A DNA stretch of 64,000 nt, taken from contig BCKE01000004.1 of NCBI GenBank assembly GCA_001600495.1, positions 316,631 through 380,630 on the forward strand, written 5' to 3'. Position 1 is the stretch's first letter; every line of letters begins with the position of its first letter. The DNA comes from Pilasporangium apinafurcum (Eukaryota; Oomycota; Peronosporomycetes; Pythiales; Pythiaceae). A program made the translations under genes and the position numbers. The notes beneath the pieces were generated by a model that saw only the letters and a program-made list of their open reading frames with translations, was not told where the DNA came from and did no database searches. Shown here piece after piece: positions 55,645-64,000 of the stretch.

Positions 55645-58485
55645 TCATACCAACTCCGTTAGACCAGTGACAACATCAGCATCAAACTCCAATCGCGGGG
55701 CCTTCGTCACGTGATGACCACCGCTTCCACTTTCCATATCACTTGCTGTAGTAGCGCTGCTGCGGCTACGTTTCTTATACTTGGTACCCTTCAGCGACAC
55801 AGCAGGAAGAATCGTACTGTCCTTATGCAGGTCTTCAGCCGCAGGAATCTCGATCCGCAGGTTGCGATTCACTTCGGCGTACGTTGCAGCTTTGTAGATC
55901 GAATCAAAGCCGTCCATAAGCGCCGCTTCACTCGCAAAATGCAACGATACTGCAATAAAATGGCGACAAGGAATGCCCACTTGGTACATTTGACCACATG
56001 TGCAGGTTCGTAGCGAGAGATCGACTCGGTGCGTCACTTTTGGCCGAGCACCAGTTCGCCATGTAAATGCCACCTGTTCATCACACAACCGAACGGTGTA
56101 GGCTTCGGATTCCTGCAGCTCCTGACGGTACATCGCATCAGCACCAGGCGTCAACAAAGGGTTTTCAGTTATCAACTTGGTAGCGAGCTGGTTTTTCTTA
56201 AAGATGAAATCCATCAAGAATGCCAGGAAAGTATAAATCAAATCAAAGGGCGCTTCGTCACTAAACTGTACATCGGATCCGGTGATAGCTTCTTCAGCAC
56301 TCGTACTCGACCACTTATACAAGCGAATAGAGCGATTGAGGTAGTACGCCCAGTTCTTCGGGTGAATAGAACGAATGAAAGCAGCAGCTGGGCCATTCAG
56401 ACTATCCAGTTGATTCAATACCTTCAAAAAGCCTTCTTCTGTTTCTTGGCTCTGCATGCCCCACACCAAATCTTCCAAACTGCCCAACGCAGGAATGTTC
56501 TTATCCCGTTCCATTTCCTCAATGAGGCTTCGAACACAAAACATAATCTTTGCATTACGTGCTTCACTCGCGAGTGCACGTAGCAGTCCATTTTGACTGT
56601 GACTACAAAACACAGGATATCCATCAAAGCGTGCACCACCGCTCTTTGCCATCGCCAAGAACCATTTCATATGTTCCATCTCGCTGTTAGGCATCAACGC
56701 AAACGCAATGACTTGGCTCTTAAGATTTCCGTCGCATCCGATCAGCAATGTTAAGCAACCATTGTAACTAACGTTGTCATAATTGATGACCTTGATTCCG
56801 AATACTTGCTGCATGCACAACAACGCAAGAGACGTAGCGTTAGGCATAAGGAATGCGCGAACAAAATGACCCTGGTCATCTTTCTCATAAGAAATCGTGG
56901 AACCAGGATTCTTCTTGGCAAACGAATCCAGTAAACTCGGAATAAATTTGTAACTCTCTGTGAGATCGTCGGTGGAAGTCGCCACCACAAGCCGCTGCGC
57001 CCGGTAAGCCATCCCACGAGGGATCTTAATCCCCGACTCGGAATTGAGCAAGAATGAATCTGTCAAGAGCTTCCCGGTAGATTTCGAGTGAGTGATCACT
57101 GCTTGTCGGAAGAAACGCATTTCAGCAAGCTGCCGCGCTGTGGGCTTAGCTACACCAGTGCAGTTATCTGAGTGCTTCAGATTCATAGCCGAGATCTTCC
57201 AGTTCTTGGATTTCCACCCTTTGACCAACTGCACAAACCAAAGGCAGTGCTCATCAGAACACACATACTTTTTGTTGCTTCCACCGTTATTTTTCTTGCA
57301 GAGTTTCGATCTTTTCCGCTGCACTACTAGCGCAAAATCACTAATGGCTTTGGTGGCTTCTTTTCCTGTGCTCCAGCGCATTTCATGGGTGAGCTGATAC
57401 TTGGAGACGTCGTCCACTAACAGCGATGACGACGGTGCTGAGTTATTTTGACCAAGCATAAGATGGTCATCCGCTGAACCACCGCCCATATTCCCGTTGT
57501 TCCCATGATGGGATGCACTGCTCATTCCTCCTCGCATCGTCGATGCAGCGACTGCTTTCCGCCGTGCGTTGAAGTTACATGTTTCTAGGCATTCTTTCGA
57601 GTGCAGTAAGTGCATTGAAAGCACCGTGTATTGGTCTGCAACAGTCTGAGACTCTTCCAGCACGATCATCCACTCACAGTTGGAGTTGCGATGGTTCTGA
57701 CAGACGACACGGCGCACTGTGATGCTCTTACCCTGGAAAATCATCTGTGTCGCCTTTTCTGCAACCGCACGGCGTCCCATTTGATGTGCCAACCCTCGGA
57801 TGGCGCCAATTGCTTCCTTCCAGCTCATAAAGACCATGTTCACGTGCACATGCGAGCCTAACGCGCCAACATTTCCTCCGGCGATTGCAGCCGTGGCATC
57901 CGGAATCTGCGGCAGTGCTATACCCGACGAGTGAGGATGGTGGTGATTACTATCTGATCCATCTCCTTGCCTCAATCGCTGGAAGGAAGTAGTAATAGAT
58001 GAAGACGAAGGAGTCGGCAATGATGCAGTGTGACTTGCTGCCAGCCGTTGTGTGGGTTCAGGACAATTTGTCTTGTGATGCGCAATATTCATGCTCGAGA
58101 TTTTCCACTTCTTTTCGCTCTTGATGTACGACAAGCGCACAAACCATTTGCACTCAGGTGCGTTTTCGCATTCTACCACGACTACATTGGGTGACGCACT
58201 TGATGTCGAGGATGTTGAGTAGAAATTTCCACCGGTAGATAGCGTCGTCACATGTGTGCTTCCATCGCCAGCACCGCTCGCTTCGTCTTCTCCGTCTACC
58301 TGACCGGATGAAAGCGAACCAGTTGTCGGTCCACCGTCGTGGTCTTCGGAGGAGATTCCGGTCACTGTGGCTTCTGGTTTCTGTTGGATACGTACGCGGC
58401 GCTGTTGTGTCTGCTCCGCAAAAGTTTCCACGACCGCGACTGCGTCAGCGATCGTCACATATCGTTCTTCCTTTCGTAACGCCAT
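55645..58485 (-). CDS. Domesticated MULE (Mutator-like) transposase with SWIM zinc finger
   Basis: 946 aa, single exon, ATG at 58485. Three N-terminal repeats of MuDR/WRKY-GCM1 type, each with CxxxxCxW(F/M) and a C-terminal H-x-C (for example CKWFVRLSYIKSEKKWKISS, CLWFVQLVKGWKSKNWK). A MULE transposase core follows (INYDNVSYNGCLTLLIGCDG, SEMEHMKWFLAM), then SWIM (CTCGQMYQVGIPCRHF). The second catalytic Asp seems lost: the usual SDxxxGLxxA reads CSHSQNGLLRA. An intact long frame without terminal repeats nearby suggests a domesticated DNA-binding protein, comparable to plant FAR1/FRS or MUSTANG genes. Confidence 0.75.
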   Translation of the reverse strand: MALRKEERYVTIADAVAVVETFAEQTQQRRVRIQQKPEATVTGISSEDHDGGPTTGSLSSGQVDGEDEASGAGDGSTHVTTLSTGGNFYSTSSTSSASPNVVVVECENAPECKWFVRLSYIKSEKKWKISSMNIAHHKTNCPEPTQRLAASHTASLPTPSSSSITTSFQRLRQGDGSDSNHHHPHSSGIALPQIPDATAAIAGGNVGALGSHVHVNMVFMSWKEAIGAIRGLAHQMGRRAVAEKATQMIFQGKSITVRRVVCQNHRNSNCEWMIVLEESQTVADQYTVLSMHLLHSKECLETCNFNARRKAVAASTMRGGMSSASHHGNNGNMGGGSADDHLMLGQNNSAPSSSLLVDDVSKYQLTHEMRWSTGKEATKAISDFALVVQRKRSKLCKKNNGGSNKKYVCSDEHCLWFVQLVKGWKSKNWKISAMNLKHSDNCTGVAKPTARQLAEMRFFRQAVITHSKSTGKLLTDSFLLNSESGIKIPRGMAYRAQRLVVATSTDDLTESYKFIPSLLDSFAKKNPGSTISYEKDDQGHFVRAFLMPNATSLALLCMQQVFGIKVINYDNVSYNGCLTLLIGCDGNLKSQVIAFALMPNSEMEHMKWFLAMAKSGGARFDGYPVFCSHSQNGLLRALASEARNAKIMFCVRSLIEEMERDKNIPALGSLEDLVWGMQSQETEEGFLKVLNQLDSLNGPAAAFIRSIHPKNWAYYLNRSIRLYKWSSTSAEEAITGSDVQFSDEAPFDLIYTFLAFLMDFIFKKNQLATKLITENPLLTPGADAMYRQELQESEAYTVRLCDEQVAFTWRTGARPKVTHRVDLSLRTCTCGQMYQVGIPCRHFIAVSLHFASEAALMDGFDSIYKAATYAEVNRNLRIEIPAAEDLHKDSTILPAVSLKGTKYKKRSRSSATTASDMESGSGGHHVTKAPRLEFDADVVTGLTELV

Positions 58486-58745
58486 TGTTCCTTCCGAGAC
58501 ACGCGCGCTCCACCGCGACGGCTTTTGTGAAAGGCACTCTCCACTTTTCAATGCGGGTTCCCCCTCTTTTTCTTCTCTCCTTCTCTCCGCCTGCTCTATT
58601 TTGAATTAATAAAAAAACCTCACGATGGGTCCAAGTTTTTTCAAAATAAGTGAAAAAAAAATGCCATTGCCACTAAAACGAGGTATAAAACCTTATAGTG
58701 ACATCGCTCCTGTTGCCAGAATGCGGTCACAGTTGGCATCAGTAG

Positions 58746-63479: not shown

Positions 63480-63658
63480 ATCTACCAACCGTCCCACAAT
63501 TGCATCATGGTACGTTCCGTGTTTTGTTGCGCCTAAGGAGATCCGCATAGATGCCAAAGATACCAAAGTACCGGACACCTACTCCCTCTTGGGCCTATAA
63601 CACCAGTAAANCTGGCAGGACTCCTCGAAGAAGGCGACTTCGATATTTTTTTGNTTTA
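63480..63658 (-). other. 3' flank of the Fanzor/TnpB gene, possible guide-RNA end
   Basis: 180 bp between the nuclease stop and the hairpin at 63455. In TnpB and Fanzor elements the omega RNA and right end lie just here, overlapping or following the 3' end of the gene. The stretch has two ambiguous bases and no gene on the minus strand. No element end could be placed by eye. Confidence 0.25.
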
Positions 63659-64000
63659 TCAGGCGAAGTGTTCGCGCAAGATAGATCCGCCGATATTCTT
63701 GTGGAAGATGTTCTTTGCGGCACTTACATCACGATCGTGATCAAANGTGCACTTCTTGCATTTGAATGTCTCGCTTCCACTGAGTCTCTTGTTGATCTTC
63801 CCGCAGCGTGAGCACGAGATGGACGTGTATCTCTCACAGACTTCTTCCAAGTGTCCGCCTGTGCGCTCCATCTTCTGTGTTAGGAGCATTCTAAACTGAT
63901 AATGTGACTGAGCCAACATCATCCGCGTCGTCGGACTTGAAATCTTGCGCTTGCGTCCACGTACTGTCAGCATCTCCTCTGGCTCCCATAAGTTTCTTGG
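63659..64000 (-). mobile_element. TnpB/Fanzor-type RNA-guided nuclease homologue, C-terminal part
   Basis: The frame runs off the right window edge and ends at a TGA at 63659. At least 110 residues are visible. They show the RuvC C-terminal block: a helix with MMLAQSHYQFRMLLTQKMER, the catalytic-Glu strand VCERYTS, a zinc ribbon SCSRCGKINKRLSGSETFKC then KKC, and the DRD motif in HDRDVSAAKNI. This order (E-x-YTS, CxxCG, CxxC, DRDxxAAxN) is diagnostic of TnpB and its eukaryotic Fanzor relatives. The Glu and Asp of the RuvC triad are present; the first Asp lies outside. Ambiguous bases occur at 63611, 63654 and 63746, the last inside the zinc ribbon. Confidence 0.8.

What the first reader, a model, noticed from the sequence alone, without database searches (positions are those of the whole stretch)
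63480..64000. TnpB/Fanzor-type RNA-guided nuclease in an oomycete-like genome
The visible C-terminal RuvC block keeps the catalytic Glu (ERYTS), the zinc ribbon and the DRD Asp, so it may be active. Fanzors are the eukaryotic relatives of TnpB and use an omega RNA encoded at the element 3' end. Here the 180 bp after the stop is short, gene-free on that strand, and bounded by a strong hairpin. It is the only clear mobile-element enzyme in the window that still looks catalytic.
Basis: partly seen in the sequence, partly recalled or inferred. Interest (0 to 1): 0.8.

Follow-up and report, generated by a model that had tools for sequence, protein, structure and literature searches.

The report
Multicopy Fanzor2 element with cut-and-copy scars
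The gene end at the window's edge belongs to a family of dozens of jumping DNA elements in a probably oomycete genome that encode Fanzor, an RNA-guided DNA cutter, and a few copies carry junction marks that look like traces of the cutter being used in nature.

Summary
63659-64000 (-) is the C-terminal 113 codons of a Fanzor2 nuclease; the next base starts an assembly gap, so this copy's N-terminus cannot be read. It belongs to a young family (55 left-end and 40 right-end matches listed). Two of eight gap-free copies keep one open frame with the Fanzor fingerprint. Copies sit after CCG (46 of 50 left ends), the TAM measured for Naegleria Fanzor2; the last 107 nt fold into a plausible omega RNA. 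No transposase is encoded, but the genome holds at least 150 IS607-type recombinase pieces. New point: 26 of 31 end pairs lack target duplication, but 5 carry, right after the TAM, 6-11 nt of their own right flank (the presumed guide), joined by 2-4 nt microhomology to a trimmed left end. Best reading: scars of Fanzor cutting the empty allele, with repair from the element (inferred). Chlamydomonas Fanzor1 elements reported in 2013 show a like pattern. Activity and host species are not established.

The parts
63659..64000 (-). C-terminal 113 codons plus stop of the Fanzor2 gene of this copy; the rest lies in an assembly gap beyond the window
63833..63835 (-). alternative RuvC-II catalytic Glu (ERYTS), six residues before the zinc ribbon
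   Evidence: fingerprint as described in PMC10711439
63749..63814 (-). C4 zinc ribbon (CSRC ... CKKC)
63728..63739 (-). RuvC-III HDRD block with the last catalytic Asp
63530..63636 (-). predicted omega RNA scaffold, 107 nt, closed by CGCCU...AGGCG and ending with the CG core; predicted from the fold of copy L010, not from RNA data
63530..63532 (-). right end of the element: last base of CTTAGG (63532), then the CG core dinucleotide (63531-63530)
63510..63529 (-). right flank, presumed 20-nt guide of this copy's omega RNA
   Evidence: inference from the boundary and from TnpB/Fanzor biology in PMC10432273 and PMC10711439

Best explanation
A TnpA-less, IS607-like transposable element that encodes a Fanzor2 RNA-guided nuclease. 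Copies are probably moved in trans by IS607-type serine recombinases through a CG core dinucleotide, without target duplication (inferred). The 3' end gives an omega RNA whose guide is the right flank (inferred). Fanzor2 with that guide recognises CCG followed by the guide sequence, which exists only in the empty allele, and cuts it some 15-20 nt downstream; repair from the filled allele copies the element in (homing; inferred). Because the cut is distal to the TAM, the left broken end keeps CCG plus part of the guide sequence; when that tail is only partly trimmed and joins the element by microhomology, a scar is left: TAM, a short copy of the right flank, and an element with a nibbled left end. 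Shown here: gene family, ends, CCG/CG sites, scars, and one empty-site comparison each for a scarred and an unscarred copy. Inferred: cutting, homing, transposase.
For: Fanzor identity. Multicopy: 44 matches to the window end, 55 left-end pattern matches with 0 in the reversed control. CCG stands before the core in 46 of 50 distinct left ends; the 4 others (L030, L035, L062, L071) differ by one transition. It equals the TAM of NlovFz2, which cuts after base 19 (passage of PMC10432273). Right ends: CG in 34 of 40 and TG in 6. Scars: 5 of 31 end pairs; at least 7 shared nt including the G in 4 of 29 true pairs against 0 of 812 mismatched pairs. Microhomologies 4, 2, 3, 4, 3 nt, P about 4e-5 under random joins. 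Empty sites: 37 of 38 other places found with the L046 (scarred) joint run across it in one alignment, ten of them read; the L043 (unscarred) joint fits the same repeat with no base gained or lost at the joint. Serine recombinase pieces: at least 150 places; phage-integrase-type recombinase: none. Like pattern reported for Chlamydomonas Fanzor1 elements: duplications of about 7-19 bp right after TTTT in mostly 5'-truncated copies, none in copies with the exact 5' end, and in only 1 of 200 copies of a Helitron family given as comparison (passages of PMC3627910).
Against: Only five scars; L030 counts only if its left end is paired with a second right end about 3.4 kb further on, a pairing chosen after seeing the match (with its nearer right end it shares 2 nt). 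No RNA or cleavage data. Lys to Ile at a nearly invariant site and pN/pS 0.81 with 4 stop changes give no sign that the protein is kept active copy by copy. Left cores vary in unscarred copies too (TACGG, CATGG, CTCAG and others), which the scar model explains only by later transposition of altered ends; a check on 3'-end differences was uninformative. Ends are unlike those of the TnpA-bearing family here (TTTTAACC...GGTTAA), and that family's Fanzor is only about 44% identical. The PF00239 profile alone finds 3 serine-recombinase places; the count of 150 comes from one family's own sequence and most of those pieces are short or carry stops. The IS607 core described in the passages read is GG, not CG. 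Changes in the omega RNA copies do not favour pairing (24 break, 15 keep it). In Chlamydomonas a few duplications are far longer (44-443 bp) than a cut at 19-21 nt allows.
Confidence: 0.55

Rival explanations
1. Ordinary variable-length target duplication: an unknown transposase makes staggered cuts, and the copies without duplication lost it by ectopic exchange or decay.
For: Five copies do have flanking repeats of about 7-13 bp. Fanzor2 elements with duplications and inverted repeats exist in an alga and molluscs (PMC10711439).
Against: 26 of 31 pairs lack a repeat; the unscarred L043 site shows neither duplication nor loss at the joint; repeat length varies, and 1-10 nt of the element's left end are missing with 2-4 nt microhomology, which a staggered cut does not predict.
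Confidence: 0.2
2. Tyrosine-recombinase style movement with a short non-homologous coupling sequence carried between sites (as recalled for Tn916 or Crypton elements), giving variable left cores and occasional matching cores on both sides.
For: Left cores vary while CCG and ACTTTACC mostly stay fixed; L025 and L046 match their right flank over just about that core.
Against: The core length is not constant (element loss 1-10 nt); no PF00589 recombinase in the genome (0 matches, 14 of 14 controls positive), though divergent eukaryotic types could be missed.
Confidence: 0.1
3. Dead passenger: Fanzor2 no longer cuts; the family was spread only by serine recombinases in trans, and the scars are aberrant recombination or repair unrelated to Fanzor.
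For: Six of eight gap-free copies have broken frames, pN/pS 0.81, Lys to Ile in a nearly invariant block.
Against: Two of eight gap-free copies keep a 648- or 724-codon stop-to-stop frame; the repeats start at the motif that is a measured Fanzor2 TAM.
Confidence: 0.25
4. Bacterial contamination or an assembly artefact.
For: The window's copy ends in an N gap and many copies contain gaps.
Against: Matches lie on 33 contigs with unrelated flanks; best named relatives are oomycete; the window copy lies between a Rab-type GTPase frame and a PHD-finger frame (named by eye, not searched).
Confidence: 0.02

Closest known systems
Fanzor2 in IS607-like elements, with one Fanzor2 family each listed for Phytophthora sojae, P. 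capsici and P. ramorum (PMC3627910, passages seen)
   Same: DPG plus alternative Glu, zinc ribbon, N-terminal HTH_OrfB_IS605; nearest named proteins are from Nothophytophthora and Phytophthora (47% and 44%)
   Different: no TnpA in the element, CG rather than GG core, many recent copies, long basic N-terminal region
NlovFz2 of Naegleria lovaniensis (PMC10432273, passages seen)
   Same: motif CCG before the target; P0046, a Naegleria lovaniensis protein with the same fingerprint, aligns (26%)
   Different: cleavage is measured there and only inferred here; whether P0046 is NlovFz2 itself was not checked
Mimivirus Fanzor2, PDB 9b0l
   Same: best structure match (E 7.9e-16) and best PDB sequence match (1.5e-9)
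   Different: viral; 20% identity over the structural alignment
CRe-1, CRe-2, CRe-3 Fanzor1 elements of Chlamydomonas (PMC3627910, passages seen)
   Same: variable duplications of about 7-19 bp that start right after a fixed motif and go with truncated left ends, absent from copies with exact left ends
   Different: Fanzor1 in Helitron2-type elements; duplications are commoner there (about 70% of CRe-1) and a few are far longer
TnpB gene drive in bacterial insertion sequences (PMC11870625, abstract and outline seen)
   Same: nuclease reprogrammed by the insertion site cuts the empty target
   Different: prokaryotic, IS200/605; junction scars are not mentioned in the abstract

Membership tests
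Fanzor (Fanzor1/2) | DPG motif at the first RuvC Asp | tested here: met
   ALDPGV in L013; not readable in the window copy because of the gap
Fanzor (Fanzor1/2) | catalytic Glu six residues before the zinc finger | tested here: met
   CERYTSISC in the window ORF and L013
Fanzor (Fanzor1/2) | C4 zinc ribbon followed by RD | tested here: met
Fanzor (Fanzor1/2) | encoded in a eukaryotic nuclear genome | tested here: met
   33 contigs with unrelated flanks, neighbouring frames of eukaryotic type (by eye); species unknown
Fanzor (Fanzor1/2) | omega RNA is expressed and guides DNA cleavage | not testable with these tools
   only a fold prediction, z -3.11
Fanzor2 | closer to Fanzor2 and TnpB than to Fanzor1 | tested here: met
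   Foldseek: mimivirus Fanzor2 7.9e-16, ISDra2-type TnpB 1.5e-13, SpuFz1 3.5e-5, GtFz 1.3e-3; no tree was built
Fanzor2 | N-terminal helix-turn-helix (HTH_OrfB_IS605) | tested here: met
   PF12323 E 5.7e-10 in L013
IS607 element | encodes a serine recombinase TnpA | tested here: not met
   none of the 3 places and none of the 150 listed places (150 of 243 candidates scored) falls inside the 8 gap-free copies; not known for copies with gaps
IS607 element | insertion at a matching dinucleotide, no target duplication | tested here: met
   CG/TG core; 26 of 31 pairs without repeat; empty site of L043. Five pairs do carry repeats
IS607 element | GG core as described for IS607 | tested here: not met
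   core is CG here; GG in PMC10711439
IS200/IS605 TnpB | canonical Glu about 50 residues before the zinc finger | tested here: not met
   the strand at L013 512-522 reads VLLPTFQTKKM, no Glu, with Pro 515 invariant in the 14 aligned proteins; that this is the RuvC-II strand is recalled
Fanzor2* in cut-and-paste transposons | inverted repeats and target duplications | tested here: not met
   no fixed-length duplication in 31 pairs; inverted repeats were judged only by eye on the ends

The most novel reading that the evidence does not exclude
The variable, TAM-anchored 'duplications' at left ends are fossil scars of RNA-guided homing by Fanzor in eukaryotic genomes, seen independently in an IS607-like Fanzor2 family (here) and in the Chlamydomonas Fanzor1/Helitron2 families described in 2013. 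If so, they reveal the native job of Fanzor and let TAM, guide start and cut distance be read from genome sequence alone.
Probability: 0.45. Interest if true: 0.85.

Novelty: new member of a known kind. Interest (0 to 1): 0.6.

Why it matters
Fanzors are proven RNA-guided nucleases in the test tube and in edited cells, but what they do for their elements in nature was not shown in the passages read here. A junction signature that starts at the TAM, contains guide sequence and ends in a microhomology join would be direct genomic evidence of homing, and can be looked for in any genome with a multicopy Fanzor. The host genome, with at least 150 TnpB-type zinc-ribbon places and at least 150 serine-recombinase pieces, offers much material.

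Tried and rejected
Hairpin as element end: rejected by 40 of 40 right ends. Extra constraint on the omega RNA: a first pass gave half the coding diversity; after removing divergent or gapped rows (33 of 41 kept) it vanished (0.0146 against 0.0122-0.0146), so no claim is made. Common descent of the TACGG-core copies: inconclusive. Naming the host through a PhyH-like neighbour gene: three unnamed proteins only. Database support for the in-frame L024 joint: none; its genomic search was unique. Empty site of the window copy: none found, its joint matched only its own two halves. Rfam: no match. Three more altered left ends (L064, L076, L081) could not be paired: the stretches fetched for their right ends were all N for two and held no end for the third. 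The 124-bp right-end pieces (L043-L046) looked like solo ends, but the rows are N beyond them. L048 was fetched without need and served only as background.

Full report
What is there. The window's last 342 bases on the minus strand are the C-terminal end of a TnpB/Fanzor-type protein (Pfam TNB 72.3 bits; NCBIfam guided_TnpB E 9.4e-18 for the fragment and 109.6 bits, over the cut-off of 100, for the full-length copy L013). The base after the window begins an N run of 1530, so the rest of this copy is not readable. Its left end reappears beyond the gap at G000:C4:382463-382489, equivalent to window position about 65.8 kb, 30-odd bases before the ATG of a frame that looks like a PHD-finger protein (named by eye).

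The family. A DNA search with the window end gave 44 matches on 33 contigs of the same genome (40 of 61 candidates scored); 40 of the 44 begin at query 225-233, that is at window 63524-63532. The longest matches are 95-99% identical to the window copy. A pattern for the left end gave 55 places and none for the reversed control. I fetched 39 loci carrying copies (L009-L047) and 20 short left-end stretches, so that 51 of the 55 left ends were read; 4 were not fetched. Eight copies have no gap between their ends (largest N run 1-2: L013, L014, L019, L020, L030, L031, L033, L047). Two of these eight, L013 and L014, have one uninterrupted stop-to-stop frame of 648 and 724 codons. L010, L019, L020 and L027 keep a start region (MKRRGRPPDF or MKGRGRPPDF) that L013, L014, L017 and L024 lack. 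The gap-free element is about 2.3-2.65 kb: some 400-470 bp without a gene, the Fanzor gene, and about 130 bp of 3' non-coding sequence. No serine-recombinase match or 83 falls inside the eight gap-free copies.

The protein. L013 matches HTH_OrfB_IS605 (5.7e-10), OrfB_IS605 (weak, below cut-off) and TNB (3.6e-19). Of the 89 protein files held (86 relatives plus the 3 unrelated hits), 71 carry both DPG and the late Glu by a simple pattern. The named relatives with the best scores are Nothophytophthora and Phytophthora. The model made from 14 sequences has mean pLDDT 67 and pTM 0.52, so only its core is reliable; the fold search puts mimivirus Fanzor2 first. The block YTSKT, nearly invariant in the alignment, reads YTSIS here, a warning about activity. 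A basic stretch (21 of 40 residues Lys/Arg) lies in the N-terminal extension. Among 33 comparable copies, codon positions 1, 2 and 3 and the 3' region vary alike (0.0132, 0.0122, 0.0146, 0.0146), pN/pS is 0.81 and four stop changes occur: the copies drift, as expected of transposons served in trans.

Ends and target. All 40 right ends printed stop at CTTAGG (or a one-base variant) followed by CG (34) or TG (6). Left ends begin, after the host flank, with CCG and a short core (mostly CTTGG) before ACTTTACC; CCG stands there in 46 of 50 distinct left ends, the other four being L030, L035, L062 and L071 (read from the list; a 51st, L067, also CCG, was dropped by the script because its last 14 bases equal those of L016). 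Two copies, L043 and L046, sit at positions about 20 bp apart in copies of one repeat, so other repeat copies show the empty site: 37 of 38 other places found with the L046 joint cross it in one alignment, and ten were read. L043, without scar, rejoins with no base gained or lost at the joint against L088; support to the left of that joint is short, 7-13 nt in 9 of 40 matches. CCG is present in 6 of the 10 empty sites read at the L046 position. It therefore belongs to the target. An insertion core contained in the TAM is what the IS607 TnpB of Xylella shows (TAM GGG, core GG; PMC10711439). CCG is the TAM measured for NlovFz2 (PMC10432273).

Omega RNA. The last 107 nt of copy L010 fold at -43.2 kcal/mol against a shuffled mean of -31.95 (z -3.11), with a closing stem CGCCU...AGGCG that takes in the CG core. 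This resembles the published finding that the right-flanking base is part of the IS607 scaffold. Changes among copies do not favour the paired positions (24 break and 15 keep pairing, 19 lie in loops), so the support is from folding energy alone. Rfam has no match.

Scars. For 31 copies both ends could be read; 29 came from the script, and L015 and L036 were added by hand. In 26 the bases after CCG share at most 3 nt with the right flank. In five there is a relation: L025 6 nt, L046 6, L047 9, L030 10, L029 11, counted after the YG. In a control that paired left and right ends of different copies, 0 of 812 reach 7 shared bases (G included), against 4 of 29 true pairs. L030 is the fifth: its left end matches the flank of a second right end about 3.4 kb beyond its first, a pairing made after seeing the match. 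In all five the left end of the element is shortened, by 1, 10, 6, 2 and 5 nt (L025, L029, L030, L046, L047), and the join shares 4, 2, 3, 4 and 3 nt with both sides; for random joins a sum of 16 or more has P about 4e-5, taking CTTGG as the donor's end. Right ends are precise in all five. For L046 the empty sites show a single copy of the repeated run.

Mechanism. Serine recombination at a dinucleotide does not make such repeats, and a fixed staggered cut does not make them variable, motif-anchored and joined by microhomology. RNA-guided cutting of the empty allele can. The guide is the right flank; the cut falls well inside it (after base 19 in NlovFz2); the left broken end keeps the TAM and up to that many guide bases, a tail with no partner at the left side of the filled allele. 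Clean trimming gives perfect homing and leaves no trace; partial trimming with a microhomology join gives the scar. The right side is fully homologous and stays clean. Shown: the pattern, the motif and an empty site for one scar. Inferred: that Fanzor made the cut and that the allele was the donor.

Literature. Bao and Jurka 2013 (PMC3627910; passages seen) list Fanzor2 families in three Phytophthora species and describe Chlamydomonas Fanzor1 elements in which copies with exact left ends have no duplication, while most others, 5'-truncated ones above all, have duplications of about 7-19 bp right after TTTT or a like tetranucleotide; about 70% of CRe-1 but 1 of 200 Helitron-1N1 copies have them, and the authors left open whether the Fanzor protein is the cause. 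The same explanation fits both, including the upper length of most of their repeats, though they also report a few much longer ones (44-443 bp) that it does not fit. Of PMC10711439 I saw the outline, part 1 of 3 of the Results and passages; of PMC10432273 passages; of PMC11870625 the abstract and outline; of PMC12633428 passages, which mention a Fanzor element as the most abundant repeat of an alga. Searches for Fanzor with homing (15 of 16 listed), target site duplication (58, 7 of 7), microhomology (90, 4 of 5), oomycete (19, 8 of 9) and Phytophthora (89, 7 of 8) listed no paper whose title or abstract start offers this reading; the full texts were not all read, and most subscription papers are not held.

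Genome setting. At least 150 places match the TNB profile (150 of 852 candidates scored). The PF00239 profile finds 3 serine-recombinase places, each next to a Fanzor match; the sequence of one of them (28.3 bits against PF00239) finds at least 150 (150 of 243 scored), most short or with stops. One TnpA-bearing, decayed family was outlined (L055, L056, L057, L061; ends TTTTAACC...GGTTAA). PF00589 gave none. The mobiliser of the present family is therefore unproven; a serine recombinase in trans is the likeliest.

Limits. The assembly is gapped inside repeats and carries ambiguous bases, so inner parts of copies may be mixed between loci; the junctions rest on mostly unique flanks and are safer, but long reads should confirm them. 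The species is not identified.

Noticed in passing
whole genome G000: At least 150 TnpB-type zinc-ribbon places and at least 150 pieces of an IS607-type serine recombinase in 36 Mb, many broken: a large IS607/Fanzor2 load.
   Followed up: partly
L030, reverse strand, about 3588 and 6992: Two right ends of the family downstream of one left end; the outer pair shares the 10-nt repeat, as if a compound block or an ectopic copy had been used in repair.
   Followed up: partly
right ends of the copies, about 12-16 nt before the end of CTTAGG (window 63544-63547): A two- to three-base spot that differs in many copies (AG, CG, TC, AC, GG and others) while its neighbours are nearly constant.
   Followed up: no
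window 55645-58551 (-): 968-codon frame with SWIM finger and a MULE match below cut-off: probably a second transposon-derived gene in the window.
   Followed up: partly
L041, left flank of the young copy: An older relative (about 80% identical) of the element's 5' region lies just upstream of a young copy.
   Followed up: no
L013, L014, L017, L024, 5' region: The start of the coding region is missing; in L014, L017 and L024 the loss lies between two CACGATG repeats.
   Followed up: no
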